Assembly (NCBI GenBank): GCA_021432635.1
Contig: MU270020.1
Location: forward strand, 1,009,202 to 1,073,201
DNA from: Thozetella sp. PMI_491
Taxonomy: Eukaryota; Ascomycota; Sordariomycetes; Chaetosphaeriales; Chaetosphaeriaceae
Direction: 5' to 3'
DNA: 64,000 nt
Shown here in pieces: positions 8,430-54,644 of the stretch. The notes below the pieces were generated by a model that saw only the letters and a list, made by a program, of their open reading frames with translations, was not told the origin of the DNA and made no database searches. Position 1 is the first letter of the stretch. The number at the start of each line of letters is the position of its first letter. The translations under genes were made by a program, and so were the position numbers.

Positions 8430-11314
8430 ATGGTTCGCGCATTGCTCGCCTTCGGTGCGCTCGCTTCGGGCCTTGCCGCTGCGAAGTCTACCTTGTCGTC
8501 GGCCGAGATCGAGAACCCGCCCGTGGTCCCCGGCGCGTACGTCGTCGAGTACGAGGACAACCATGTAAGAACGCACGGTGGGCCCGCGCGGTCTGAAGGA
8601 GGCTGGTGACTTCAGCAAGCTCGCAGTATGCTGACGAGGGGCCGGTGAGGTTTATAGGACCCGGACGCCTTCATCCAGCAGATCGGGGCGGATCATGATG
8701 CGTCCCTGCGCAAGAACCTCAACTTCAAGCTCTTCAAGGGCGCGTCGATCCAGTTCCCGGTCACCGACAAGGCCGAGGACGTGGCTGCCAAAATCGCCCA
8801 GATGCCAGCGGTCAAGAAGATGTGGCCGGTCAAGGTGTACAAGATCCCAGACTATACGATCCACTGGACGGGCAATCCGGGCGACAATTACGAGGAGCAG
8901 GACATCCTATCCCAGGTGCGACGTGACACGGGCAAGAACGACACCTTCTCGCCGCATGTCTTGACGCAGGTGAACATGCTGAGAGACGAGGGCATCACCG
9001 GGAAGGGTATCAAGATTGGCATCATCGACACCGGGGTTTGTCTTTCCTGGCTATGGCGCGAATGCCTCTTGCTAACGGGAAGTTACAGACTGACTACGGA
9101 CACCCCGCTCTCGGCGGCTGCTTTGGCCCTGGTTGCCTCGTGAGCTACGGCTACGACCTTGTGGGCGACAACTTCACGGGCTTCAACACACCAGTGCCGG
9201 GCCCTAATCCGCTCGACCAGTGCAACGGGCACGGGAGCCACGTAGCAGGCATCATCGCGGCACAGGCCAACAACTCGTTTGGAGTGATCGGCGCGGCGTC
9301 GGGCGTTACACTAGGCTCATTCCGAGTCTTCGGCTGCAGCGGCGAGGCGAGCAACGACGTGCTCATTGCGGCCTACAACATGGCGTACGAGGCTGGGAGC
9401 GATATCATCACGGCGTCCATCGGCGGGCCGTCCGGCTGGAGCGAGGACCCGTGGGCCGTGGCCGTGTCGCGCATCGTCGACATGGGTGTACCGTGCGTGG
9501 TGTCGGCTGGTAATGAGGGCAGCCAGGGCATCTTCTATAGCAGCACGGCGGCCACGGGGAAGCGCGTCACCGGCATCGCCTCAGTCGACAACACGCAGGC
9601 TCCGGCGCTGCTCGCCAATGCGAGCTACAGCGTCAACGGCAGCGCGTCGCAGTCCTTTGGCTTTACGGCCGGCATCCCGGGCTCGTGGGCAAATGTGTCA
9701 CTACCGCTGTGGACCGGTAACTACAACACCGCAGAGCCCGCTGACGGTTGTGACCCGTACCCGGCCTCCACGCCTCCTCTCAACAACACCATTGTGCTAG
9801 TCCGCCGCGGCAGTTGCACCTTCGTGCAGAAGATCAAGAACGCCGTGGCCCAGGGCGCGGAATACGTTATCTTCTATAACAACGCGGCCGGCACCGCGGC
9901 AGCCGAAGGGACGGTGCCGGGCATCAAGGGCGTCGCCATGGTCACGGCGGAGCAGGGCCAGGAGTGGGTTGGTCAGCTCAAGCGCGGCGCCAGACTGGTG
10001 GTAGGCATGAACGATCCGGACAAGGCGTCCAAGTATCTCGTCAGCTACCAGAACTCGGACACGGGTGGCTACGTTAGCACCTACTCCAGCTGGGGGCCGT
10101 CCAACGAGGTCGAAGTTAAGCCCCAGTTCTCGGCGCCCGGCGGCATCATCTTGTCGACCTACCCCCGCGCCATGGGGTCGTACGCCGTTTTGTCCGGGAC
10201 GTCTATGGCTTGCCCCCTGGCGGCGGCCGTGTACGCACTCCTCATGAATGTTCGCGGCACCAAGGATCCCAAGGAGATCGAGAACGTGCTGTCGTCGACG
10301 GCGCGTCCGGCCCTCTTCCACGACGGCAAGGAGGTCTACCCGGCAGTGGCCCCGGTGCCCCAGCAGGGCGGCGGCCTGATCCAGGCGTACGACGCAGCCT
10401 ACGTCACGACGCTCCTGAGCGTGTCGAGCCTCTCCTTCAACGACACCGACCACTTCACGCCCGTGCAGAACTTCTCCATCTCCAACACGGGCACCAAGGC
10501 GGTCACCTACAGCCTCGGCCACCTCGGTGCGGCGACTGCATACACCTTCCTCAACGAATCAACGGTCGAACCCGACACCTTTCCCAACGACCTCTATGCC
10601 CGATACGCGAACGTCAGCTTCACCCCGTCCGGCAACTTTACTCTCCAGCCGGGCCAGCGCAAGCTGATCTCGGTGAAGCTGACACCCCCGACCGGCCTCA
10701 GCCCCAAGCGACTACCCGTCTACTCGGGCTACTTCACCGTCAACGGAAGCGACGGCACGGCGCTCTCGCTACCCTATCTCGGCGTCTACGGAAGCATGCA
10801 CAGCACCGCAGTGCTCGATGTCCCGCGCACGCTGCTGAGCCGCAAGCTCGACCGCAACAACACGAGGGCGGCATCCAACATGACCTTCGCGCTCCCGCCG
10901 GCTGGCCACGCGAACGACACCATCTACGCCAACACCACGGACCTGCCCAAGGTGGTTGTCACGCTGGCCATGGGCACCGCGATCGTGCGCTGTGAGGTGG
11001 TGCCCGTCGGAGACACCAAGTTCGCCAACGCGACGACCGTGCTAGGCACCAAGACCATTGGCCAGCCCTCTGGCTTCCCCAGGGAGTATGAGTCTCGCGG
11101 CGTGACACCAACAACGTGGGATGGGAAGCTGGCGGACGGAGGGTACGCACCCGAGGGCTCGTACAAGTTCGTCGTCAAGGCGCTGAGGATATTCGGGGAC
11201 CGGGAGCTCGCGAGCGAGTACGACACGGCCGAGACGGTACCCTTCAACATTCGATATCTGCTGCCAGGCGAGCGTGGGACCGGACGAGGTCGGGTCACCC
11301 GTAGGAACCACTGA
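8430..11314 (+). CDS. Secreted subtilisin-like serine protease (S8A) with PA and Fn3-like domains
   Basis: Three exons (8430-8564, 8658-9035, 9089-11314) give 912 residues; the introns are 93 and 53 nt, both phase 0, and the second has a GCTAAC branch site. A signal peptide (about residues 1-18) is followed by an inhibitor_I9-type prodomain (about 35-115). The catalytic triad is complete: Asp169 in GIIDTG, His219 in NGHGSHVAG and Ser543 in SGTSMACP; the oxyanion Asn is N313 in SAGNEG. A protease-associated (PA) domain is inserted at about 370-470 (VLVRRGSCTFVQKI). After the catalytic domain comes an Fn3-like beta-sandwich region with many N-glycosylation sites. The order matches the large Vpr/C5a-peptidase-like subtilases that fungi secrete to digest protein or attack hosts. 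No C-terminal anchor is seen; the tail is basic. Confidence 0.93.
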
Positions 11315-36107: not shown

Positions 36108-36930
36108 ACGGTTTGGAGGATTGGGCAGGCTGGCGTTTTATTTTTCCAATGATGATTTTGTTTTAAGCATGTATGATGACAAATATCCCGGTCCGAATAA
36201 AAGAAAGCGCATCATTTAATAGTATGTACGTTTTCGTGCTTGTCCCCGTGTTCATGTCATTGTTTGCCGTAAAGGAAGCCGTAGAGGCTGCGACATGGGT
36301 GTTCGCTTCGGCGCGACACGTTACTTGTGTTCCAGCTTAAGGGCCAAGGAAAGCTCTAGCTACAAGACCCCTTGTCTCCTTGGGTCACTTCTCATACACA
36401 CACCATGGGAATGACCGACCGTGCTCATTGTTTATCTCATGGCTGTTTTGGGCGTATTCACCTCAGCCCTAGCTCGACCCATCGTCGCCGGGGCCCTTGG
36501 ATAGCTGGAGCCAGAGGCATGTCCGGGCAAGAAGTAGACCTGTGACAGCCGCCGGATATGGAACAGGCACCAATAGTATGGCAAGATTCTTTGGGAAGGA
36601 CCTAGGACTCGCGACTGCGAAACATCCGGCATCGCTTGCGCTTGCTGCGAGTGGATGGGAAGGCGCGCCCACTACGGCAGATACGAGAGCCAGGCAGGCA
36701 GGCACGCTGAGGAGGACAACGCAGAGTCTGGGACGCCCCCCTCGCTCTCCATCTACATCGACTTCTTAAGTTGGCCACTTCCTTCACGTCATCCCCCGCC
36801 GCTCGTTGTTCTCCCTCTAGGTACTCAGCATCGCGATAGCATCCGCAATCTCCTGTGCCCTCTCTGGTCTCCGTGCCATCTTGTCTCACCTGGTCGTATT
36901 TCGCAACTCAATCTCAGCTCAATCTCAGCC
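36108..36930. other. Spacer between two GPI-protein genes
   Basis: About 820 bases with the 3' UTR of the BIM1-like gene (AATAAAAGAAAG at about 36197 resembles a polyadenylation signal) and the promoter of the next gene. A frame open from 36655 joins the next gene but lacks a signal peptide at its start, so it is taken as leader. Confidence 0.4.
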
Positions 36931-37704
36931 ATGCACTGTCATCGCCCCCTCCTGTTCGCCATGACCGGTGCCTTGGGCGTCGCACTGGCAAGCCAGGCCG
37001 AGGCCTCGGGATCGCCTGATATCGCCAATGCCCTCCCAGCAATATTGGGACATCATGCCGTTGACGTGACTACTGTGATCGCCATCTCCACTATCACAGT
37101 CCAGGGAGGCACCGTCACTATCGGTGGAGGAACTACTACTGTCACGGCTGGTGCCACTGGCCCAGTTGCCTCACCTCCGCCATCGCCGCTCACTGACCTC
37201 ACTACCGGCACCGATGCGACCGTGCCTTCAACCTCATCAACCGAGGATAGCGTGACAACCATCACTGTCCCCCCTTCCACGAGCTCAACCGCCTCGGATA
37301 GCATCTTCACTGGTCCTAGCCTCGCCTCAGCTAGCAGCGAGATCCTGCCTACTGTCCTCACGGAGAATACCCCAACCATTGTCGCTTCCGGTGGCTTCAG
37401 CACTAGGTTTCTGGGCCCCCCAACCAGCAATGGCACTCTCAACGTCTCGATGACTCCGACCCCGGCCCCTACTTCAGTGTCGGATGGAGACTCTGATGAC
37501 GGAAGCGGCAAGTCGGAATCGACGGGTGCGAAAGGCAGTTCCTCCAGTGCCAAAAACGCTGCCTCTCTTGAGACTAGTTCTCCTCTCCACCGGTCAGGCC
37601 CCAAGTCCTTTTGCCCGCAATTTATATTGGAGCTAACGAAGTCGCGGTCTAGGCGTGCCGCTATCCTTGCCGCCGCCATCCTCGTCCCTGCCATGGCGTT
37701 CTGA
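36931..37704 (+). CDS. Ser/Thr-rich GPI-anchored surface protein
   Basis: The ATG at 36931 starts a signal peptide (MHCHRPLLFAMTGALGVALA). The mature part is almost all Ser, Thr, Pro, Gly and Val and should be heavily O-glycosylated. Near the 3' end a 60-nt GT-AG intron is likely (37593-37652): it has a CTAAC branch site 20 bases before the TAG acceptor. Splicing joins the Ser-rich stalk directly to RRAAILAAAILVPAMAF, a normal GPI signal, giving 237 residues. Without splicing the frame stays open and inserts 20 residues including a Cys and a basic patch, giving 257. No catalytic domain is seen; a structural or adhesive wall role is likely. Confidence 0.75.
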   Translation: MHCHRPLLFAMTGALGVALASQAEASGSPDIANALPAILGHHAVDVTTVIAISTITVQGGTVTIGGGTTTVTAGATGPVASPPPSPLTDLTTGTDATVPSTSSTEDSVTTITVPPSTSSTASDSIFTGPSLASASSEILPTVLTENTPTIVASGGFSTRFLGPPTSNGTLNVSMTPTPAPTSVSDGDSDDGSGKSESTGAKGSSSSAKNAASLETSSPLHRSGPKSFCPQFILELTKSRSRRAAILAAAILVPAMAF

Positions 37705-38055: not shown

Positions 38056-41000
38056 CTACCGCACATGCCATCGCTCCGAAGGTTGCTGCATCGATTGTGT
38101 GGAGAATCGCAGCTTGCTTAGGTCGTGGGTCAGATCAACTTCGACCCCCTCATCGTACGAATCGTCACCATCATCCTCCTCGTCCCTCATATATCCTTCC
38201 TCTCCTGCCCCCCGGCTGCGTTGCTGCGTGTGTCCTAGACGCTGGCTCTGTCCTTGCTCCCCTTGGGAGGAAGGCCCGGGCGCATTGCCCTCAGTATTGC
38301 CCTCGCCTAGCTCGGTGACCCTGCTGGCCCTGGCCTTCTTCAGGTAGAAAGGATCTCCCTTTATGACGGTCTGTCCGCCGGGGAGCCTGATCTCGCTGGC
38401 CTCCAGCGTCTCAATTATGTCCTCCAAGAGCACCTCCATTGGGCAGATGTAGGCGACTCTTTTGCGCTCGCTCCACGCTAGGATGTGGCCGCAGAGCTTG
38501 CCCTGCTGCCGGTCGACGATCCAGGCACCGCTGTCACCCGGGATGCCCATCGGAAGGGCGCTCGTGCGCGGACCACCCCCTCCGGACACTTGGTATGTGT
38601 GACTGGCCGACGTGCGCCCGTAGATCTTGACCGAAGTCAAGGTTGGCAGAATGAGGCCGGTCTGGAGCCCGCTCGTCCGCGCCATGCACTGCACCTCGAG
38701 CCCAGGTAAGCTCGAAGCAGGCACGACAGCAGTCGGATGCACCACATCGTTGGTGGCGGCCTTAGCTGGCACACAGGGAATCGAGTTGTCGTCGGGCTGC
38801 CGGTCGTCGTTGAATTCGAACAGCGCCCAGTCAATCTCGTGGATTAGGCCGGCGTCGTCGGATCGCCGGCGGATGCCACTTGAAGCGTACACCTCGCCCA
38901 GGCCGTAGGTATCTAGATGGTCTTCGTCCTGGGTTTCGGATGATGGGTAGAAACCCTCATCCACATCGTCGAGGGCCGGCTGGGTCACAATATATCCCTC
39001 ACCGCAGCCTGGCTCGACGCCAGGGATGTCGCCGGTTTCGAAGTACTGGCCGTCGTCGTCCTCGTAGTCCTCCTCCGAGGACTGGCTCGTAATAGCCGAC
39101 TCGGAAAATGTATCAGAATCTGAATCGGAGAATTCACAGGCGTAGTCCTCGCTACCGGAGCTGTCACCCTCGGAATCGGCCCCTTGATACTGTGAAGCGT
39201 ACCAGGCTGCTAGGTCGTTGACGTCGCCCTGGCCTCTCGCCATGCTTCTAGGCACTACCTCCTTCGTCTCGGGAGTGCTCTCCTCCTGATCGGGATCGTC
39301 CAGCATGTGGTGAACCGTCATACCGTAAGGCTTGTCGTCGACCATGATGAGACCGCCAAAGCTCACAGGCGGCAGGTGCCTGTCGCCGATCCACGCGCCA
39401 ATGCTGGCTCCATTATGCGGCCGCTCCTGGAAGTCGGGGTTTGCTGCCGTGACCTCTTCGCCATCCCCCCCCGCCATGCTGCGCCCAGCCTTGTGATTCC
39501 GCGACCGGAGCACCTGACCTCGGCAAACCTTGAGCGCGAACCCGGTCGTGCCATCGAAGAGGGCTCCCAACTTCTTCTTCAAGATCGCCCGCACCTTGCT
39601 AACTGACGTGCAGACGACCAGCACAGTAGGCTTGGTCTTGAGAGGGGACTCGCCGATCGACTCGAGGGAGATTTCGACAGACTCTAGGTTCTTGTGGTAG
39701 AAATGGCGCAGAGCGATGTTGATCTGCGGCATGAGTACCTTGTTCCATTGCTCTACGGCGTCGGGTGGGAGAGGAACTTGGGGGTATAGCCGCGTCTTGT
39801 GTGAGGGCTCCTTCGGTTTCGCTTCGGCTGTCTTCTCATTAGCACTGCTCGTAGATGCCCAGAATGGACCGCTCTTACGTTCGGCACCGCTAACAAGTCC
39901 CTCGCTAGCTTGGCGGAGCGACAACTTCTCAGTTCTCCCGCTGTTGGGCGAGGTGGGGGTGGCGAGTTTTTCGGATTTCATCTCTTTAGATGGGCCCGCA
40001 GATGAAGACGTGTTGAGGCGCGGCGGGGCTGGCCTCTCCTCCCCGAGGTCGTCACCGAGACGCTCCTCGAGGTTGCTGACGCCGTCCAAGATGCAGCATG
40101 CCTCGAGGTACCGGCTCGCCTTGAGCTGGACGCGTGCAACGACCTGCTCGCTGGTGAGCTGGCCGGTCATCTCTTGGTCCACAGCTGTCCAGCAGGTCTG
40201 CACTGCCTTCATGTAGAGCGTGCCACAGCGGATGGCGAGCTGCTCTAGCACAGACTCGGGGACAGCAGGCGACGAGGGGTCCGGCACGAGGTTCTCGAGG
40301 TTTGTCCACAGACCGATCGAGAGAAGAGCCATGGCCAGGGAGTACAGATCAAAAGTCTTTGAGTCGGCGTTGTTTGCCAGCGGTGATTGTGCGGTGCTAC
40401 GTGGGTCGAGAGGGTGTTTGTATAGTGAGACGGTAGACTCGTCTTGAGACGCTGGCTCGGAAAACAAGTCGAACGACGAGATGAGCGGCCGCCGGATATC
40501 TACCTCGCCTTGGCTAATACCGCTGACACCTGGGTCGGTCCCGACTGCGTTGCAAAATGACACATTGCTGCCGATGAGGTGGCCATGGGTAATGCCACGG
40601 GCATGCATGTCGAAGACCGTATTCGCCAGGTTGGCAGCGAGGCGGAATTTGGCCTCCAGCTTCGGCTCGAAGTCCGGCCGCGATAGGAGGTCGGCCAGCG
40701 AGCAGAGGTTGTAGAGGGGGTTCTGGGTTAGGTGCTCAAAGGAGACCGGGTTAAAGGTGGCCGGGAAGTGGTAGACCAGACCGAGGCGCGAGTGCTCCAT
40801 ATCCTCAAAGTAGCCGAGCAGGCGAGGCAAGCCCGTCCACGAGCCCGGCGATCTCTGGGGCTCTGTCTGGAGGCCCGAAGAGAGCCTCTCGAACCTAGTC
40901 ATGGGCGGCATGATGCCAGTCGTCGAGTAAATAGAGTCGAACGGCGCAAACTCGAGGAGCAGAGGCGCATATGTCGGTCGGCTGGCCGAGCTCTGCGTGA

Positions 41001-41721
41001 GGGCCGAATACGCTTGCTTGCTCATGAAGACGACCTCGCGGGAGCGCTCCTCTTCTCCCGCCTCCGTCATGGGCTCAGCCTGCATGGAGCGGAGGTTGGT
41101 CAAGGTGGAAGGGTCGATCTGCTGCGGCGTCTGCATCCTAGACGACTCGAACGGCCGCAGATCCTCGACGGACGAGGCAGACTTGAACAGACGCTCGCGA
41201 GCGGCAGCTGAAGACTGTGCGTATGAGGACCGGGTCCTCGACAGGTCGTAGAGAGTGTCGATAGAGGTGGTGAGGTCGCGCACCAGGTCCTCGAACCGGT
41301 TCTTGTCCCACACGACGAGCTGGATCTTCTCGCCCCGCACCGGGGCCTTCTCCGTCTCGACCCGCTCGCCGGCGAGACGTCGAGAGCTGTTCCATAGCGG
41401 CTCGGCCTCGGCGAGGATGTCCTTGATGGTGGACATGATGCTGCCGACAACCTCGCTTAGGCCTGCCTTGGACAGGGACGAGTCGATCAGCACCTCGGCG
41501 GATTGCTGGTTAGGGTCGGACCACTCCAGACCCCAGCTGACCAGACGGTCCTTCTGGATGCGGAGCTTCCGGTGCAGCGCCTTGATCTCCGGGTCGGCCT
41601 CGGAGGAGCTCTGCACCGGCTCCTTGACGAAGTCGGACGACTTCTTCGTGTCATTGTATAGTCTGCTGAGCCGCCGCTGGAAGGGCATCTGGAAGCCCCC
41701 CATGGGGATGATGGAATCCAT
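38056..41721 (-). CDS. HeLo-like / pseudokinase / trypsin-like protease fusion
   Basis: A single exon of 1221 residues. Residues about 45-160 are helical and resemble the second half of the fungal prion-inhibition/HeLo domain (KLRIQKDRLVSWGLEWSD, then a long SIMSTIKDILAEAEPLW helix). Residues about 255-545 resemble a protein-kinase fold without its catalytic residues: the HRD-N loop reads GITHGHLIGSN and the DFG position SSFDLF. Residues about 650-740 are a conserved-looking linker (KPTVLVVCTSVSKVRAIL). The C-terminal part has a complete chymotrypsin-type triad: His804 or His805 in YGMTVHHML, Asp964 in HEIDWALFEF and Ser1064 in GIPGDSGAW. A strongly acidic Ser/Asp/Glu insert (about 845-935) separates His and Asp. 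There is no signal peptide, so it acts in the cell. I infer a regulated protease in a signalling or self/non-self pathway; the HeLo and kinase assignments are by eye. Confidence 0.8.
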   Translation of the reverse strand: MDSIIPMGGFQMPFQRRLSRLYNDTKKSSDFVKEPVQSSSEADPEIKALHRKLRIQKDRLVSWGLEWSDPNQQSAEVLIDSSLSKAGLSEVVGSIMSTIKDILAEAEPLWNSSRRLAGERVETEKAPVRGEKIQLVVWDKNRFEDLVRDLTTSIDTLYDLSRTRSSYAQSSAAARERLFKSASSVEDLRPFESSRMQTPQQIDPSTLTNLRSMQAEPMTEAGEEERSREVVFMSKQAYSALTQSSASRPTYAPLLLEFAPFDSIYSTTGIMPPMTRFERLSSGLQTEPQRSPGSWTGLPRLLGYFEDMEHSRLGLVYHFPATFNPVSFEHLTQNPLYNLCSLADLLSRPDFEPKLEAKFRLAANLANTVFDMHARGITHGHLIGSNVSFCNAVGTDPGVSGISQGEVDIRRPLISSFDLFSEPASQDESTVSLYKHPLDPRSTAQSPLANNADSKTFDLYSLAMALLSIGLWTNLENLVPDPSSPAVPESVLEQLAIRCGTLYMKAVQTCWTAVDQEMTGQLTSEQVVARVQLKASRYLEACCILDGVSNLEERLGDDLGEERPAPPRLNTSSSAGPSKEMKSEKLATPTSPNSGRTEKLSLRQASEGLVSGAERKSGPFWASTSSANEKTAEAKPKEPSHKTRLYPQVPLPPDAVEQWNKVLMPQINIALRHFYHKNLESVEISLESIGESPLKTKPTVLVVCTSVSKVRAILKKKLGALFDGTTGFALKVCRGQVLRSRNHKAGRSMAGGDGEEVTAANPDFQERPHNGASIGAWIGDRHLPPVSFGGLIMVDDKPYGMTVHHMLDDPDQEESTPETKEVVPRSMARGQGDVNDLAAWYASQYQGADSEGDSSGSEDYACEFSDSDSDTFSESAITSQSSEEDYEDDDGQYFETGDIPGVEPGCGEGYIVTQPALDDVDEGFYPSSETQDEDHLDTYGLGEVYASSGIRRRSDDAGLIHEIDWALFEFNDDRQPDDNSIPCVPAKAATNDVVHPTAVVPASSLPGLEVQCMARTSGLQTGLILPTLTSVKIYGRTSASHTYQVSGGGGPRTSALPMGIPGDSGAWIVDRQQGKLCGHILAWSERKRVAYICPMEVLLEDIIETLEASEIRLPGGQTVIKGDPFYLKKARASRVTELGEGNTEGNAPGPSSQGEQGQSQRLGHTQQRSRGAGEEGYMRDEEDDGDDSYDEGVEVDLTHDLSKLRFSTQSMQQPSERWHVR

Positions 41722-43370: not shown

Positions 43371-46300
43371 CTAGAGCTCATCCTTGATGTGAGCGGCCTT
43401 CTCCCCGGCAGTCTTGACTGCTTCGTGGGCATCGCCGGCAATGCTCTGGATGGAATCGGTGCTTGCTGCATACGCGGCGCTAAGCCTCGAGTAGACGCTC
43501 TCGACAAATGTCTGCTCCTTGCCGACGAGGAGCTCTGACACGATGCTGTGGACGGCCTCGTACTGCCTGTCCGCCTCCTTGGGCGCAGCGGTGGCGTATG
43601 ATACAGCCTCCGCGGCCACCGAAGCGGCCGACGAGGCGTACTCCCCGGCTGCGCTGTACACGCTTTCGTACCACGGGGTCGGGGTCGGCGCGCCGTACAC
43701 TTGGACGCTAATCTTGGTGACCAATACCTCCCAGGTGTCCGCTAGCTTCTCGGCAGCCGCCGAGGCCACCGAGGCCGCGGATTCGCTGGCGACCGACGCC
43801 ACCGACGAGAGGGAGCCGGCCACGTCTGTCGGGGTCGGGGTCGGGGTAGCGGTCAACGAGCTCATGGCAGAAGAAGCAGCCGCGAGGAACTCGGTATAGC
43901 GGGCATGGGCGATGCCCAAGCCCGCGTAGTAGTTGTGCCGAGCATTCTCGAGCGCCTTGTTCATGTGCTGGCCCGGAGTGGACGGCGTGGGTGTGGGTGT
44001 GGCTAGGCCGATCGCAACCTTGGCACTCTCGTATTGTTCTTCCGCCCAGTTTCGGCCCTGTTGCAAGCGCTCTGCCGCAATAGATTCTATCTGCGCCCAG
44101 TTGATGTCGGGCAATGCGGTTGGGAGGAGCTTCTTTGTCGGGCTCGCGGAACTGTGGAGGCGCTCCTGTGCGACCCGGAGAACGCTCTCCAACTTCACAC
44201 TCGCAGAGGCTATGGCATTGCTGTAGGCCGAGGTCACAGAAGCCAGCATCTTCTCCTCAGCAGGCTCAGGGGGGCCACGGATTTGAGCCGAAATCATGGA
44301 AATGGCTTGTGTGTACTGCTTGTCGGCACGCGACAGGGCAGCTGAGTACGCCGAATGAGCCATGGAGGACAGCGAAGCGGGCAGCTCGTCGAACTGTTCG
44401 TCGAGGATAGGCTTCCTGCTCGGAACAGACTGTGCCGCAGCGCCGAGGAATGCCGGCTTGACTGAAGTTGTGGAAGTGGAAGGAGGCACGTCCTCGATGG
44501 GGAGCTCGACCAACGGCTCTTCTAGCTCTGGTTCCAGCTCGATTTCGGTTGGACTCTCTACGTCCTCTGCTGATACGATGTTTTCGAGCATCGGGTCGGC
44601 CAGGATCGGGGCTGACGCAAGGTCGGGCGTTACCTCGGGCTCTTCCTCGGCCACAGTGGATGTCGAGACCGCCGGGTCCTCGGGCGCGGAAGAGGTCGCT
44701 TCTTCAATTGCCTCCGAGGCCGACAAAACATGCTCTGGCAACTCGGATGCGCTTGCTTCTTCGGTGGCGGATGAAGGCTCTTCAGTAGAAGCGGTGGTAG
44801 GCTCACTCTCGACTGAGGAAGCTACCTCTGGCGTGACAGTTTCGGCAGAGCTTGAGACGTCGGAGACAGGTTCCTCTGGAATAGAGCTTTCCGTCACAGC
44901 CTCATCGGCAGATGAGGTGGCCACGGCCGGAGCCTCGCTCGCAGCCTCCGCAGCCTGGGCTTCCAAGGCGGCACTCTCAGCAGCGGCCGCCTTGCTGCTC
45001 TCGGCAGCTTCGGCCGCCTGCCTCGTGAGGTCACTGTCGAACTCCTCGCTACCGTCGCTAGCAGCGATCTTCCAGGCGGCCACCTGCTTGAGGCGTCCGA
45101 GCTCCTTAGCCGCACTCGCCGCCACCTTCATCGCCTGGTCTTCGATGTCGGCCCCTGTGTCGTGAGCGACGATGAGCCCAGGGTGCGTGACGATGAGCTG
45201 CTTAATGTCCTCCTGCCACTCATCGAACCGATCCTTCAGGAGGTGGTATTTGGCCCAGTCCTTGTAGGTAACACCTTCCATCCAAGCCCACTTCATGCCG
45301 ATCTTCTGCAATGCAAGATCCCTGATGCCGTCGAGGATTCGGAAGTGCTCGTCGGCGGCCTCGGTGATGGAGCTCTGCATCTCCATCTCAAAGTCCTCTC
45401 TCCACTTTCGGATGTCCTGCGCCGCCTGCTTGATAGACATGCCCGCCTGCCGGACGACAGTAGTCACCTGCTCCAGTCCTTCCTCGGGAGACGCGCTCCC
45501 CTTGGCCACAGCGCCGACAATATTGAGGATATGGCGGCGCAGCGTCATCAACTCCGAAACGACCGTGGTCTGCAGCTGCTCGACCAGAGACTTACCCGTG
45601 GTGCGTGCGTTCCGGCGGACCATGCGCTTCGTAATCTCCTCGATGCGCGACTCAATCTCAGCGGCGCCCTCGTCGGCAGCCTTGGCATACCTCTCCTGCC
45701 AGTCCTTCAGGTCCTCCGTGACCGTCTCGCGCGCAATCCGGCGCACCTCGCTCTCGTCCTCGTCGTCTCGCTCAGGGGCAGGAACGGGCTCTGCTCGCGA
45801 CCTAGGCGCCTCAGATGAAGCGGCAACTGGCTCGGTCGTCACGGGGGCCTCTGAGACAGGCGGCGGGGACTCGACCGGGACTTCCGATGAGATAGGGGCA
45901 GCCGAGCTGGTGGAAACCGAAGGAGATGGCTTCGCGAACGATGACGACGCCTTGCTCGCCGAGCTGGGGAAACGTCAGCGGAGATGCGCAATTGCGACTC
46001 GGGAAACTTACCCTGGGGTCGAGTCGATCACATGCTTTTGGCTCGGCTTCTTCTCGCTGTACCGCCCAAGGCGTTGCCCAATCTTGACAAGCTGAGGCTC
46101 GACATTTTCGACGTAAACAACCCTCAGCTGGGGCAGGACAGTGCTGTCGAGGAAGAGGTAGGTCTTGTTCCAAGCCCACACGATGGATGGAACAGCCACA
46201 TCCGTAGTGAAGGCCGACGCCGTCTCGTAGCCCTGATGCGCGTATGGCTGGAGGTACACGATGGTGGGAAGGAGAACCTCATGGTAGGTCTGCAGCGCGC

Positions 46301-49301: not shown

Positions 49302-52300
49302 ATGGGGGACATCCGCACCGAGACCTCCACTATGGGGGATATGCGCACTTTGGCCGTGGATCCCGACACTTGCCGCATCTGCCGAGGGGAGGGGACGACC
49401 GAGGAGCCTCTGTTCTACCCTTGCAAATGCAGCGGCAGTATCAAATTCGTTCATCAGGAGTGCCTAATGGAGTGGCTCTCACACTCTCAGAAGAAGCACT
49501 GCGAGCTCTGCAAGACGCCGTTCCGCTTCACCAAGCTCTACCACCCAAACATGCCCAAGGCCCTGCCCTTCCACGTCTTCGCTGGCCATATGGCCAAATA
49601 TATCCTCCGGAACCTCATGGCCTGGCTGCGGGCGGCTCTGGTGGTCAGCGTATGGCTAGGGTGGCTCCCTTACCTAATGCGCTCCGTCTGGTCCTTCTTG
49701 TTCTGGATCAGCGACGAGGGCCTAGCGGGTAACTCGTTCCTCTTCGGCAGGCATGCCGCGGCGAACAGCACCGAGGCTCTGTTTCCCGTCGGCAGTGCTG
49801 GGGTCTGCCCCTCGAGCCCGCTATTCGCCGCCACAACCACAGTTGCCACCATCGGCGGCGTCCTCGAGCAGCTTCCGCCAGAGTCGGCTCAGTTAGTCAA
49901 GCGGCTATCCGGATTCAACCTCACCTCGTCGGATCCGCTCTACTCTACCATCTTGCGTCTACTGTTTAGCAATGTCGGCCCGGCCGAGCGGGATGCCTCC
50001 TTGAACGCTACGCATGCCGTCATCGAGAACGTTGCCCTGCCGCCCCCGGCTCGCAAGTCGCTTCTTAGCGATGTCTCTTTCCTCCGAAACCTGACCCGGC
50101 ATGCTACCATCAACCAGACCATCGTCCAAGTTCTCGAGGGCCAGATCATCACCATCTTGGTCATCGTGTGCTTCATTCTTATAATCTTGGTCAGAGACTA
50201 TGTTGTACAGCAGCAGCCCGAGATCAACATGCGGGCCGCCTTCGCGGCCGCCGAGAACGCTGCCCAGCAGCCAGTCCAGGAGGAGATCCGGCAAGACGAG
50301 CATGCTGTCGACCACCATGCGTGGGCCGATGTTGAGGATGCGCATCAAGCACCGGTCGATGACTTCGAGCATCAAGTCCCGCTCGTCGACGAGCCGTGGA
50401 TGATAGGGGACAACTTCCGCCCAGAAAGGCGGGACCCTGGTCCAGCCGCACTTCCAAGCGAGGGCCTTCACCGACGCCTCCCGCGCCGAGAAAGCACGCC
50501 GGAGCCCGATCGCACGCTTCCGGCCGAGCTGCCAGGCGAGACACAGTGGCGCGTGCCACCCAGCTCCTCCCCCCAGTACAGGAGCACAGAAGGCTCCCCT
50601 TCTACCACACCATCTGCTGCTCCCGAGGGACAGCATCAGCTCTCTGTGGACTACTCCCGAAGCGACGTGGAAGAATCCACCGTCCAAGAGTATTTGAAAA
50701 TATACCGAGAGGCGGGTGGAGATCCCGAAAAGATACTAGATATGGTCAAGGAGAGGCATCTCGAGGACAAGCTGGATTATTGGATCCGTCTGACAAAATC
50801 CATGATGGATCGCCCCAAGTCCGTTGATCATGACCGCCGAGACCCGAGCCATGGTGGCAGCTCAATATACGACCGGTATGCACGCGCCACTGGCTACATA
50901 CCTGAACTTAACGTTCCGGCCTCGTCCCGGGAATCTGACCGATCTTCCGATTGGACCTGGCCGGACGAGCAGGCAGAAGACACGGCCGATGCAGCTAAGG
51001 GGAAGGGGAAGCTCAGAGATGATGTGCCAGATTCACCCACTTTTCGGGCGGCATCTTCACGGCCAAGGTCCAACACGGACGGCCCAAAGGTCGCTGCCGC
51101 CATCAACCCGCTCGCCAACAACAACTGGTCTTTCTCTGACTTGCCCGGCGACCCAGTCACCGCGACCACCAGCAACAACAGCTGGTCTTTCTCCAACCTA
51201 CCCCACGAACCGTCGACGGCCTCGACTTCGGACTCGTTCGGAGAGCCCTTGTACAAGATGCATATTGACCACAGCGCGCCAGGTCTGGACGCTCCCTATC
51301 GCCTGGGCCCCTTCGACCGCGAATCCAGTGTTCAGGCAGAGAGCGGATCTCCGCCGCCAGATGCATCCAGTGTGGAGGTCGAAGTTGACCACGGCTCAAT
51401 CTCGTCCGGACATGCCGATACGACAGCGTCGGATGATCTGCTAACAGATGCCGAGGAAGCGGGCACGGACACCCGGCCAGACATAACCAACTTCGACTTC
51501 AATACCGCGCCAGCTCCACCAGAAGCTCCTCCGCGAAGACGACAGCCAGTGGGCCTAATGGACCATGTGGCCGACTTCATGTGGCGAGACGTCGAGGCGA
51601 TCGACCCGGCCGAGCTTGCGGGCCCTAACGGATTGGACATCTTCGACGAGAACGACGACGCGGGCTTTGGCGACGGTGGCCAAGAGGATGGGATGGGCGA
51701 CGAGATGGAACGGGACCAAGAGGTCGTAGAGGCCGCGGTCGCCGCCGGGCTCGACCCAGAGGCGATCGAAGACGCTGAAGATTTGGAAGGCATCATGGAG
51801 CTCCTGGGCATGCGGGGCCCGGTCGCCGGCCTCTTTCAAAACGCGATCTTTTGCGCCTTTCTCGTCTCGGTTACCATCTTTGTTGGCATCTTCGTGCCGT
51901 ACAACATTGGCCGCATTAGTTTCTGGACTATCGCCAACCCGATGCGCCCTGCGCGCATGCTCTTCAGTGTCTCCAAGTTCCTGCAGGACTGCGCCCTGGT
52001 TGTAATCGGCACAGGCTCGTGGACTTTCTCCTGGCTCGTCCAGGCTGTGGGCAGCCGGCTTGGCCTTCGCGCCCTCAGCGAGTATCTACCGCGTCTGATC
52101 GTGACCTCCAAGCAGATGTCTAGCAGAGCAGGCAGGAGGATTCTGGAGAGCTTCATGTCAGAGCTCCCCCTGATTTCGGCCAGCGAAATGCGGAACTTCT
52201 CAGCCCTAAGCCACGAAGCGCTCTTGACGGTCAAGGCACACATCGCGTTTGTGATTTCGACCATCGTCCAGGCCTTCAACTTTGTCTTTGCCGGCGATCG

Positions 52301-54644
52301 CTCTGTCGGGGCTGCCGATGCCCTGTCTCTGGCGACCAATGCAACGGCCGCAGCGTGGCAAGAGTTGCGCAACGTGACCGAAGTGCTCTCGAACCCGACG
52401 TCTTGGGTCGTCAACTTGACTCTCCCGGACGCAGCGACTCCGGTGGACCCGGAGCTGGCGTTCTGGAGTGGTACCGACAGATTCTACGCCATCACTGGCG
52501 GTTACATCTCTCTGTCGGTCGCCGCTGCGCTTTATCTCCGCCGCGGCACTCCGTTCTCGTCCGGCCAGACCGGCCAAGAGTGGGAAGCATCCATCATCGA
52601 TGGGCTGAACCAGGCTAGCGGGGTCATGAAGGTCATCCTCATCATTGGCATCGAGATGCTCATCTTCCCACTGTACTGCGGCTTGCTCCTTGACATCGCC
52701 CTTCTCCCTCTGTTCGAGAGCACCACCATCAAGTCACGGTTCCTGTTCAGCGTCAACTATCCCCTGACGTCTATCTTCGTGCACTGGTTCGTGGGGACGG
52801 GCTACATGTTCCACTTTGCCCTGTTTGTATCCATGTGCCGCAAAATCATGCGCAAGGGCGTTTTGTACTTCATTCGCGACCCCGACGACCCCGAGTTTCA
52901 CCCCGTCCGCGACGTGCTGGAGCGCAGTGTCACCACCCAGCTGCGGAAGATTCTCTTCTCCGCATTCGTCTACGGGGCCTTGGTGGTCGTGTGCCTCGGA
53001 GGCGTCGTCTGGGGCCTCGCATGCGCGCTGCCGAACGTGCTCCCAATCCATTATTCGTCTAACGAACCCGTCCTCGAGTTCCCCATCGATCTGCTCTTCT
53101 ACAACTTCCTGATGCCCCTGGCCGTCAAATTCTTCAAGCCCGCCGACGGCCTGCATGCCATGTACACGTGGTGGTTCCGCAAGTGCGCTCGGGGCTTGCG
53201 CATCACCTGGTTCTTGTTCGGCGAGCGGAAGATCGACGAAGAAGGCACCTTAGCCATGAGACCAGACTCTCCGTACAGGGATCTCTCGTGGTGGAAGACG
53301 CTGTTCCTGGAGCTCGACAGCACAGGCGAGGTGATCCCGAAGACGTGGCGAGATACCTTTGAGGGGGGCACGGCAAAGCCGACGTCCACTACTGCCACCG
53401 ACGAGGTCATGGACATCGGCGCCCGGAAGGACGATCTAGTCTCGTCGCACCAGCTGCGGCCTGACGGTCGGTTCGTACGCACGCCGGCCTCCGACCAGGT
53501 CAAGATCCCCAAGGCCGGGCGCGTGTTCCTCGAGGTTACGCAGGTCAACGAACGGCTAGACGGCAAGCCGGACCGCCCCGACACGGACCTCTATTCGACC
53601 AATCAGTATCAGTTTGTCTACGTCCCACCCTACTTCCGCGTCCGCATCTTCCTCTTCATCATGTTCATCTGGCTTTTTGCTGCGGTGACGGGTGTGGGCA
53701 TCACGATCGTGCCCCTCATGTTTGGCCGGCGCGTCTTCCAGCTCGTCATCCCCTCGCATATCCGGACCAACGACATCTATGCCTTCAGCATCGGCATCTA
53801 CGTACTTGGTTCGGCCACGTACGCGGCGTTCCACATCCGCTCCATTGGCGCAGCGCTCGGGCGCTGGGCCTTGACCGCCATCCGCGCCGTATCGAATCAG
53901 GATGCGATCCGCAAGGTGGGCCAGATTGTGTTCCGCGCGGTCAAGCTGGCTTATGCCTACTTCTTCCTGCTTGTCGTGTTCCCGCTGCTCGTGGCCTCCC
54001 TGCTGGAGCTCTATGCGCTGATCCCGCTGCATACCTACATGTACAACGCGCTGCTCACGGGCCAGGCGGACCCGAGCACGCTCGCGAACCAGAACCCGAG
54101 ACACACCGTCCGGGTCATCCAGGCGTGGACCATCGGCCTCTTGTACCTGAAGCTGAGCGCCCGAGTCGTCACAACCTGGATGGAAGGCACGCGCCTCGCG
54201 GCCGCCGTCCGCGCGGTCCTGCGCAAGGGTTGGCTTGAGCCCGACGTCGCCGTCCTTACCCGGGCCTTCATCGTCCCTGCGGTCGGCATCTGGCTCGCGG
54301 CTGTCGGGCTGCCGCTGCTATTTGCCAGGCTGACGGTGGCCAATGGACTCGCCGGCCTGGTCGTGCAAGCCGTTGGAGGCATTCCGCCCCAAGATCCCAC
54401 CACGCAGCTCCTGCCTGACGAGTACCTGGTGCTCATATACCGCCTCAGCTTCCCCGTCATGGCGCTCGCCGTCGTGGTGGTCCTGACCATTTGGAACATG
54501 ATCGGCATTTTCCGTGGCTGGAGAGTCCGCATCCGAGATGAGGCTTACTTGATCGGCGAGCGTTTGCACAACTTCGGCGTCGCCAACGCGCCGCTCCACG
54601 CTAAGGGCGCTTGGAAGGCCCAAGGCACTCGACTCCGTGAGTGA
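49302..54644 (+). CDS. SSM4: Doa10/SSM4-type RING-CH E3 ubiquitin ligase of the ER
   Basis: A single exon of 1780 residues. The N-terminal RING-CH (C4HC3) finger has Cys24, Cys27, Cys41, Cys43, His51, Cys54, Cys67 and Cys70 (CRICR, CKCS, HQEC, CELC). About a dozen or more membrane helices follow in groups near residues 107-140, 285-310, 845-900 and 1060-1750. The long cytosolic stretch 310-840 is acidic, Ser/Pro-rich and looks disordered. Size, N-terminal RING-CH and polytopic layout match Doa10/SSM4 (MARCH6 in animals), which marks misfolded and degron-bearing proteins of the ER and inner nuclear membrane for the proteasome. A second ATG in frame follows 10 codons later (MGDMRTL) and would keep the RING. 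It lacks introns, unusual for a gene this long in this window. Confidence 0.95.
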   Translation: MGDIRTETSTMGDMRTLAVDPDTCRICRGEGTTEEPLFYPCKCSGSIKFVHQECLMEWLSHSQKKHCELCKTPFRFTKLYHPNMPKALPFHVFAGHMAKYILRNLMAWLRAALVVSVWLGWLPYLMRSVWSFLFWISDEGLAGNSFLFGRHAAANSTEALFPVGSAGVCPSSPLFAATTTVATIGGVLEQLPPESAQLVKRLSGFNLTSSDPLYSTILRLLFSNVGPAERDASLNATHAVIENVALPPPARKSLLSDVSFLRNLTRHATINQTIVQVLEGQIITILVIVCFILIILVRDYVVQQQPEINMRAAFAAAENAAQQPVQEEIRQDEHAVDHHAWADVEDAHQAPVDDFEHQVPLVDEPWMIGDNFRPERRDPGPAALPSEGLHRRLPRRESTPEPDRTLPAELPGETQWRVPPSSSPQYRSTEGSPSTTPSAAPEGQHQLSVDYSRSDVEESTVQEYLKIYREAGGDPEKILDMVKERHLEDKLDYWIRLTKSMMDRPKSVDHDRRDPSHGGSSIYDRYARATGYIPELNVPASSRESDRSSDWTWPDEQAEDTADAAKGKGKLRDDVPDSPTFRAASSRPRSNTDGPKVAAAINPLANNNWSFSDLPGDPVTATTSNNSWSFSNLPHEPSTASTSDSFGEPLYKMHIDHSAPGLDAPYRLGPFDRESSVQAESGSPPPDASSVEVEVDHGSISSGHADTTASDDLLTDAEEAGTDTRPDITNFDFNTAPAPPEAPPRRRQPVGLMDHVADFMWRDVEAIDPAELAGPNGLDIFDENDDAGFGDGGQEDGMGDEMERDQEVVEAAVAAGLDPEAIEDAEDLEGIMELLGMRGPVAGLFQNAIFCAFLVSVTIFVGIFVPYNIGRISFWTIANPMRPARMLFSVSKFLQDCALVVIGTGSWTFSWLVQAVGSRLGLRALSEYLPRLIVTSKQMSSRAGRRILESFMSELPLISASEMRNFSALSHEALLTVKAHIAFVISTIVQAFNFVFAGDRSVGAADALSLATNATAAAWQELRNVTEVLSNPTSWVVNLTLPDAATPVDPELAFWSGTDRFYAITGGYISLSVAAALYLRRGTPFSSGQTGQEWEASIIDGLNQASGVMKVILIIGIEMLIFPLYCGLLLDIALLPLFESTTIKSRFLFSVNYPLTSIFVHWFVGTGYMFHFALFVSMCRKIMRKGVLYFIRDPDDPEFHPVRDVLERSVTTQLRKILFSAFVYGALVVVCLGGVVWGLACALPNVLPIHYSSNEPVLEFPIDLLFYNFLMPLAVKFFKPADGLHAMYTWWFRKCARGLRITWFLFGERKIDEEGTLAMRPDSPYRDLSWWKTLFLELDSTGEVIPKTWRDTFEGGTAKPTSTTATDEVMDIGARKDDLVSSHQLRPDGRFVRTPASDQVKIPKAGRVFLEVTQVNERLDGKPDRPDTDLYSTNQYQFVYVPPYFRVRIFLFIMFIWLFAAVTGVGITIVPLMFGRRVFQLVIPSHIRTNDIYAFSIGIYVLGSATYAAFHIRSIGAALGRWALTAIRAVSNQDAIRKVGQIVFRAVKLAYAYFFLLVVFPLLVASLLELYALIPLHTYMYNALLTGQADPSTLANQNPRHTVRVIQAWTIGLLYLKLSARVVTTWMEGTRLAAAVRAVLRKGWLEPDVAVLTRAFIVPAVGIWLAAVGLPLLFARLTVANGLAGLVVQAVGGIPPQDPTTQLLPDEYLVLIYRLSFPVMALAVVVVLTIWNMIGIFRGWRVRIRDEAYLIGERLHNFGVANAPLHAKGAWKAQGTRLRE

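What the first reader, a model, noticed from the sequence alone, without database searches (positions are those of the whole stretch)
38056..41721. A HeLo-like helical part, a dead kinase-like part and a complete trypsin-like protease in one intracellular protein
The triad residues (His804/805, Asp964, Ser1064 in GDSG) are all in the right order, while the kinase-like region has lost its catalytic Asp residues (HGHLIGSN, SSFDLF). HeLo-type domains are known in fungal programmed cell death and NLR pathways, and pseudokinases often act as sensors or switches (MLKL is an animal case of a helical killer domain plus pseudokinase). Joining these to a protease suggests an undescribed regulated proteolytic switch in fungal immunity or stress. 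The triad and fusion are seen; the HeLo and pseudokinase labels and the role are inferred.
Basis: partly seen in the sequence, partly recalled or inferred. Interest (0 to 1): 0.88.

Follow-up and report, generated by a model that had tools for sequence, protein, structure and literature searches.

The report
Fungal three-part protein with probable protease
What looks like a fungal genome encodes one long intracellular protein that joins a cell-death-type helical domain (apparently without its membrane-attacking tip), a kinase-like part that has lost catalytic residues, and a probable serine protease; it could be a self-contained protease switch in fungal defence or stress, although its role is untested.

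Summary
The ORF is real: 1221 codons, minus strand, uninterrupted. The HeLo label is right: Pfam PF14479, 36.6 bits against a cut-off of 23.2. But it matches in two pieces (profile 23-93 and about 147-203); profile positions 1-22, where the membrane-attacking helix would lie, are unmatched and the protein's N-terminus is not hydrophobic. The kinase label is weaker but in register: DUF7580 E 0.015-0.028, below cut-off, and a kinase profile whose best match is the catalytic loop, above 100 of 100 shuffles though at only 4% probability. HRD reads HGH; residues 236-345 hold no lysine. The protease rests on ordered motifs (His805, Asp964, Ser1064; 7 of 20,000 shuffles); no profile matched and structure prediction failed. 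No relative was reachable, so conservation is untested. Most likely a cytosolic serine protease gated by a HeLo-derived/pseudokinase module, rather than an MLKL-like pore former. No NLR or second HeLo gene was hit among window ORFs scanned. HeLo-type+pseudokinase and protease+kinase-like proteins are known; the triple fusion was not found in the papers searched.

The parts
38056..41721 (-). whole ORF, 1221 aa, single open frame, ATG start
41617..41721 (-). residues 1-35, where a HeLo domain would carry its N-terminal membrane-targeting helix; not hydrophobic here and not matched by the HeLo profile
41395..41616 (-). residues 36-109, HeLo profile positions 23-93
   Evidence: E 3.4e-4 on residues 1-130 alone, below the curated cut-off
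41155..41331 (-). residues 131-189, HeLo profile positions 147/148-203
   Evidence: E 4.8e-6 on residues 120-200 alone
40027..41049 (-). residues 225-565, pseudokinase-like region
   Evidence: below curated cut-offs
40192..40662 (-). residues 354-510, weak DUF7580 match (profile 145-276)
   Evidence: E 0.015
40564..40587 (-). residues 379-386 HGHLIGSN, catalytic-loop equivalent (HRDxxxxN) with Asp replaced by His
40462..40479 (-). residues 415-420 SSFDLF, DFG-equivalent, altered
   Evidence: alignment by eye
39307..39318 (-). residues 802-805 TVHH; His805 is the catalytic His by the TxxH spacing
38833..39216 (-). residues 836-963, acidic insert between His and Asp (36 Asp/Glu in the 130 residues 836-965)
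38830..38832 (-). Asp964 of IDWAL, putative catalytic Asp
38656..38679 (-). residues 1015-1022 RTSGLQTG, resembling stretches such as GRTTGNTCG of bacterial S1 proteases
   Evidence: by eye
38527..38538 (-). residues 1062-1065 GDSG, putative nucleophile Ser1064

Best explanation
A cytosolic fungal regulatory protease. The C-terminal region (about residues 655-1125) is a chymotrypsin-fold serine protease with triad His805/Asp964/Ser1064 and a long acidic loop between His and Asp. The N-terminal half is a signal-receiving module: a HeLo-derived helical bundle that lacks the membrane-attacking helix, so more likely an interaction or oligomerisation part than a pore former, followed by a pseudokinase that acts as a ligand- or phosphorylation-sensitive switch. 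Proposed working: a trigger on the HeLo/pseudokinase part clusters or opens the protein, the acidic loop leaves the protease cleft, and the protease cuts itself and/or a partner. Specificity is probably not tryptic, because the residue six before the serine (the Asp189 position of trypsin, recalled numbering) is Met1058. Shown: ORF, HeLo profile match, unmatched HeLo N-terminus, altered kinase loop, ordered protease motifs. Inferred: protease fold and activity, gating, oligomerisation, substrate, role in immunity or stress.
For: HeLo above Pfam cut-off but profile 1-22 unmatched and N-terminus not hydrophobic. The kinase profile's best local match in this protein is the catalytic loop in correct register, score 24.4 against at most 17.9 for the six segments that do not hold it, and above 100 of 100 shuffles; weak DUF7580 match over residues 354-510; a very weak PADLOC MkoA match over residues 352-390. 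Ordered pattern TxxH / DxAL-type / GDSG, with 60-200 and 60-140 residues allowed between, in 7 of 20,000 shuffles; the observed Asp-Ser spacing is 100. The RTSGLQTG stretch sits where several fetched S1 proteases have GRTTGNTCG-type stretches (by eye). No transmembrane-grade hydrophobic segment in the protein (maximum 19-residue mean 1.25).
Against: No family model matches the protease region at E up to 10. hhalign gives at most 1.4% probability for the protease against S1/HtrA rows, with 2 or 5 of 100 shuffles reaching the score, and at most 4.1% for the kinase. Structure prediction without an alignment failed for both halves. The motif pattern was written after the protein was seen. No homologue could be examined, so neither the triad nor the fusion is shown to be conserved. 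Nothing found in the window ties it to immunity.
Confidence: 0.45

Rival explanations
1. MLKL-like killer with a built-in activator: the protease cuts the protein in the Ser/Pro-rich linker (residues about 566-650) and frees an active HeLo-pseudokinase piece that attacks membranes.
For: HeLo and pseudokinase-like parts in MLKL order; a review notes HELL proteins with kinase/pseudokinase domains (PMC12881547).
Against: The HeLo N-terminal helix is unmatched and the N-terminus is not hydrophobic; in the review the extreme N-terminal helix is what attacks the membrane.
Confidence: 0.12
2. Upstream sensor protease that cuts a separate pore former (gasdermin or HeLo effector) encoded elsewhere, as fungal S8 and CHAT proteases do.
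For: More than 80% of fungal gasdermin genes are reported to cluster with genes for a protease domain, some of these fused to kinase-like domains (PMC12881547; also PMC10197012).
Against: The proteases named there are S8 or CHAT, not chymotrypsin-type. No NLR or second HeLo was hit among the window ORFs scanned; a gasdermin could have been missed, because I did not check that Pfam models the fungal ones and genes split by introns can escape.
Confidence: 0.18
3. House-keeping or stress regulator not tied to cell death: HeLo and pseudokinase parts serve as scaffold, and the protease processes a signalling target, as Ssy5 does in yeast nutrient sensing (Ssy5 recalled, from no call).
For: Window genes with Pfam matches are ordinary: arginyl-tRNA synthetase, DOA10-type ligase, SLAC1-type transporter, P450, ferric reductase.
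Against: The HeLo domains with a described function in the passages read act in cell death or NLR signalling.
Confidence: 0.15
4. Pseudo-protease or chance motifs: the C-terminal part has no protease activity or is not of the chymotrypsin fold.
For: No profile or fold evidence; GDSG alone arises in 973 of 20,000 shuffles.
Against: All three motifs in order in 7 of 20,000 shuffles, plus the RTSGLQTG stretch.
Confidence: 0.15

Closest known systems
HET-S-type HeLo domain proteins (Pfam PF14479)
   Same: HeLo profile matched above the curated cut-off
   Different: profile positions 1-22 and about 94-146 unmatched; no hydrophobic N-terminal stretch; fused to a pseudokinase-like and a protease-like region
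MLKL and fungal HELL-kinase/pseudokinase proteins
   Same: helical domain followed by a kinase-like region without catalytic residues
   Different: killing helix apparently absent; a protease-like C-terminus added
DUF7580 (PF24476)
   Same: weak match over the C-lobe-like part
   Different: below the curated cut-off (14.5-15.4 against 27 bits)
Chymotrypsin-fold (S1/HtrA, PA clan) serine proteases
   Same: TxxH, DxAL, RxxGxxTG and GDSG in order; Asp-Ser spacing of 100 residues
   Different: 159 residues between His and Asp; no profile match; Met at the Asp189 position
Fungal gasdermin-activating sensor proteases (HET-Q2-like S8, CHAT)
   Same: multidomain intracellular protease; fusions to kinase-like domains reported
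   Different: different protease type; no gasdermin partner seen, but this was not properly testable

Membership tests
HeLo (PF14479) | profile score above gathering cut-off | tested here: met
   36.6 bits against 23.2, E 5.4e-9; 42.8 bits on residues 1-240
HeLo (PF14479) | N-terminal membrane-targeting helix | tested here: not met
   match begins at profile 23; no 19-residue window starting in residues 1-45 above hydropathy -0.01; a distant upstream exon is not excluded
HeLo (PF14479) | full-length helical domain | tested here: inconclusive
   profile about 94-146 unmatched; single-sequence model helical here, but ten-residue blocks reach only pLDDT 60-76 at best
HeLo (PF14479) | cell-death activity | not testable with these tools
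   needs expression
Protein kinase-like fold / DUF7580 | profile score above cut-off | tested here: not met
   DUF7580 14.5-15.4 bits against 27; no Pkinase match listed
Protein kinase-like fold / DUF7580 | catalytic-loop region in register | tested here: inconclusive
   hhalign score above 100 of 100 shuffles, but 34 columns and probability 3.6-4.1%
Active protein kinase | HRD Asp, DFG Asp, beta-3 Lys | tested here: not met
   HGH at 379-381; SFD at 416-418, with D418 as a possible alternative DFG Asp; no Lys in 236-345 (placement partly by eye)
Chymotrypsin-fold serine protease | His-Asp-Ser in order with flanking motifs | tested here: met
   7 of 20,000 shuffles
Chymotrypsin-fold serine protease | profile match (Pfam, NCBIfam) | tested here: not met
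   none at E up to 10
Chymotrypsin-fold serine protease | double beta-barrel | tested here: inconclusive
   single-sequence model failed, mean pLDDT 32
Chymotrypsin-fold serine protease | triad conserved in orthologues | not testable with these tools
   no fungal collection; no relative in genome contigs or viral contigs
Gasdermin-activating fungal protease (Q2L) | S8 or CHAT protease domain | tested here: not met
   neither listed for this protein
Gasdermin-activating fungal protease (Q2L) | gasdermin gene nearby | tested here: inconclusive
   no such family among 91 ORFs and six neighbouring ORFs, but it was not checked that Pfam holds a fungal gasdermin model, and split genes can be missed

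The most novel reading that the evidence does not exclude
A one-protein death or defence switch: HeLo-derived receiver, pseudokinase relay and chymotrypsin-type protease in one chain, i.e. a fungal class of immune protease beside the known S8 and CHAT types, working without an NLR partner.
Probability: 0.2. Interest if true: 0.8.

Novelty: new variant of a known kind. Interest (0 to 1): 0.5.

Why it matters
In the reviews consulted (passages of PMC12881547 and PMC10197012), fungal death pathways open pores with HeLo/HELL proteins or cut gasdermins with S8 or CHAT proteases. A HeLo-derived domain wired through a pseudokinase to a chymotrypsin-type protease would join the two designs in one chain, and would show a HeLo domain kept for signalling after losing its membrane-attacking tip.

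Tried and rejected
Relatives: genome contigs with residues 660-1125 and viral contigs with the whole protein gave none; tblastn of residues 780-1125 in plasmids (best E 0.8, an integrase record) and of the whole protein in phages (best E 3) gave no credible match; no whole genome is held for the window. HeLo rang in 0 of 14 prokaryote control genomes, which the tool says shows nothing about absence. The second genome-contig scan and seven viral scans were not used, because those collections are prokaryotic and viral.

PDB sequence searches: whole protein none, residues 688-1110 none, kinase-like region none, residues 1-240 six chance-level matches, best E 0.24, a ribosomal protein.

Structure: both single-sequence AlphaFold jobs failed (mean pLDDT 32 and 38), so no fold search was run on them.

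Profile comparison: one search gave 20 kinase loci (L019-L038). L038, below the family cut-off, was not tried; L027, L031 and L032 lacked the motif searched for; the other 16 gave 18 rows (L035 and L036 lie close together and each gave a second, shorter row). The protease set was 10 of 14 loci tried; L043-L046 lacked the motif pattern; L015-L017 repeat L012-L014 and were not used; L048 was left out.

Upstream exon: of 19 ATG frames of 12 aa or more in the 1.65 kb before the next gene, two nested ones 1.3 kb upstream are hydrophobic (maxima 1.85 and 1.52) but do not look like a HeLo start (by eye). DFG reading 'DLF' (Asp kept at 418) was considered; SFD = DFG fits better by eye, but this is not settled.

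Papers: all ten searches used. 'HeLo domain' with 'trypsin-like': 0 papers. 'DUF7580': 0 papers. Seen as passages: PMC12881547 (plus its whole section 18), PMC10197012, PMC4986451, PMC9815663, PMC12258605, PMC7885112; all other papers only as listings.
Full report
The gene. Window 38056-41721, minus strand, is one open frame of 1221 codons from ATG to stop. Under the window's base composition an open run that long has probability 3.5e-19, and GC at the three codon positions is 0.607/0.462/0.757 against 0.608/0.452/0.760 for the DOA10-type gene nearby. It is a protein-coding gene, apparently without introns in the frame. No whole genome is held for the window; gene content and Pfam matches look like a filamentous ascomycete (inference).

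The HeLo part. Pfam-A gives HeLo (PF14479) as the only match of the whole protein at E up to 10: 36.6 bits, cut-off 23.2, E 5.4e-9; 42.8 bits on residues 1-240. Cutting the segment shows two stretches, residues 36-109 on profile 23-93 (20.9 bits alone) and residues 132-189 on profile 148-203 (27 bits alone). Profile positions 1-22 and about 94-146 are not matched. Among 19-residue windows starting in residues 1-45 none exceeds a mean hydropathy of -0.01, and the whole protein has none above 1.25. A 2025 review states that HeLo domains rely on an extreme N-terminal helix to attack the membrane (PMC12881547, passages; section 18). So the domain is a HeLo relative, but its killing tip seems to be missing. 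Of 19 upstream ATG frames before the next gene only two nested ones, 1.3 kb away, are hydrophobic; RNA data would be needed to exclude a distant first exon.

The kinase-like part. Residues 225-565 match in Pfam only DUF7580, at E 0.028, or 0.015 for residues 325-565, below its cut-off; PADLOC lists one very weak match, MkoA, E 0.014 and 11 bits over residues 352-390. I built a profile of 18 rows of bacterial protein kinases from plasmids and aligned eight segments of the protein with hhalign. The best local match is the catalytic loop, 34 columns, MHARGITHGHLIGSN opposite the loop with HRDIKPxN; the score 24.4 exceeds 100 of 100 shuffles of the same segment and the six segments without the loop (at most 17.9), but the reported probability is only 3.6%. 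In this register HRD reads H379-G380-H381, with N386 kept. The DFG position most likely reads S416-F417-D418, although D418-L419-F420 is possible. Residues 236-345 hold no lysine, so the usual ATP-binding lysine seems absent. FDLYSLAMALLSIGLW (from 457) looks like helix F of a kinase (by eye, recalled pattern). A pseudokinase is the best reading, at moderate confidence.

The protease part. TVHH (802-805), IDWAL (Asp964) and GDSG (1062-1065) lie in order. By the TxxH spacing of chymotrypsin-type proteases the catalytic histidine is H805. Asp-Ser spacing is 100 residues, against 93 in chymotrypsin numbering (recalled). His-Asp spacing is 159, because of an acidic insert with 36 Asp/Glu in 130 residues. 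In 20,000 shuffles of the protein GDSG alone appears in 973 and the ordered pattern in 7; the pattern was written after seeing the protein. RTSGLQTG (1015-1022) sits where several fetched S1 proteases have stretches such as GRTTGNTCG (by eye). Against this, no Pfam, NCBIfam, PADLOC or PDB sequence matched the region at E up to 10, nor did a version with the insert left out match Pfam; hhalign against 10 S1/HtrA rows was within the range of shuffles (2 or 5 of 100 reach the score), and AlphaFold without an alignment failed. The protease call is therefore motif-level. The residue six before the serine is Met1058, so 'trypsin-like' should mean the fold, not cleavage after Arg or Lys.

Surroundings. 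Six neighbouring ORFs were scanned and 91 ORFs of 120 aa or more (of 143 such ORFs in the window; those left out overlap genes or ORFs that were scanned, or the gene itself). Matches are a subtilase with PA domain, a DOA10/MARCHF6-type ligase, a SLAC1-type transporter, and arginyl-tRNA synthetase, P450, GMC oxidoreductase, ferric reductase, BolA, BIM1-like and berberine-bridge-like proteins. No NACHT or NB-ARC, CHAT or second HeLo was listed. Gasdermins were not properly tested: I did not check that Pfam models the fungal ones. Genes broken by introns can be missed.

How it most likely works. A gated cytosolic protease: HeLo-derived and pseudokinase parts receive a signal, the acidic loop may shield the cleft, and the protease cuts itself or a partner. 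The pore-forming, MLKL-like reading is less likely because of the missing N-terminal helix. The immune role is an inference from the HeLo label.

Novelty. [quoted passage not shown] The triple fusion with a chymotrypsin-type protease was not found in the papers searched: 'HeLo domain' plus 'trypsin-like' gave 0 papers, and five passage look-ups for 'trypsin' gave no occurrence or one in a reference list. Protein databases with fungal architectures could not be searched, so the fusion may be common and simply unwritten. I rate it a new variant of a known kind.

Noticed in passing
window 36655-37704 (+): Ser/Thr-rich ORF with a signal-like hydrophobic stretch and a hydrophobic C-terminus (by eye), perhaps a GPI-anchored wall protein; no Pfam match at E up to 1.
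   Followed up: no
window 49302-54644 (+): DOA10/MARCHF6-type RING-variant ligase of 1780 aa in one open frame, with DUF7889.
   Followed up: no
window 43371-45842 (-): 823-aa Ala/Ser/Glu-rich, coiled-coil-like ORF without a Pfam match above cut-off; the next long ORF upstream on the same strand.
   Followed up: no
window 9038-11314 (+): subtilase with PA and Fn3-like domains; by its extra domains a secreted type rather than HET-Q2-like (inference).
   Followed up: no
window 39427-39744 (-): residues about 660-765, before the protease motifs, look like a small strand-helix-strand region (PTVLVVCTSVSKVRAILKK...LKVCRGQV) that may belong to the protease unit (by eye).
   Followed up: no
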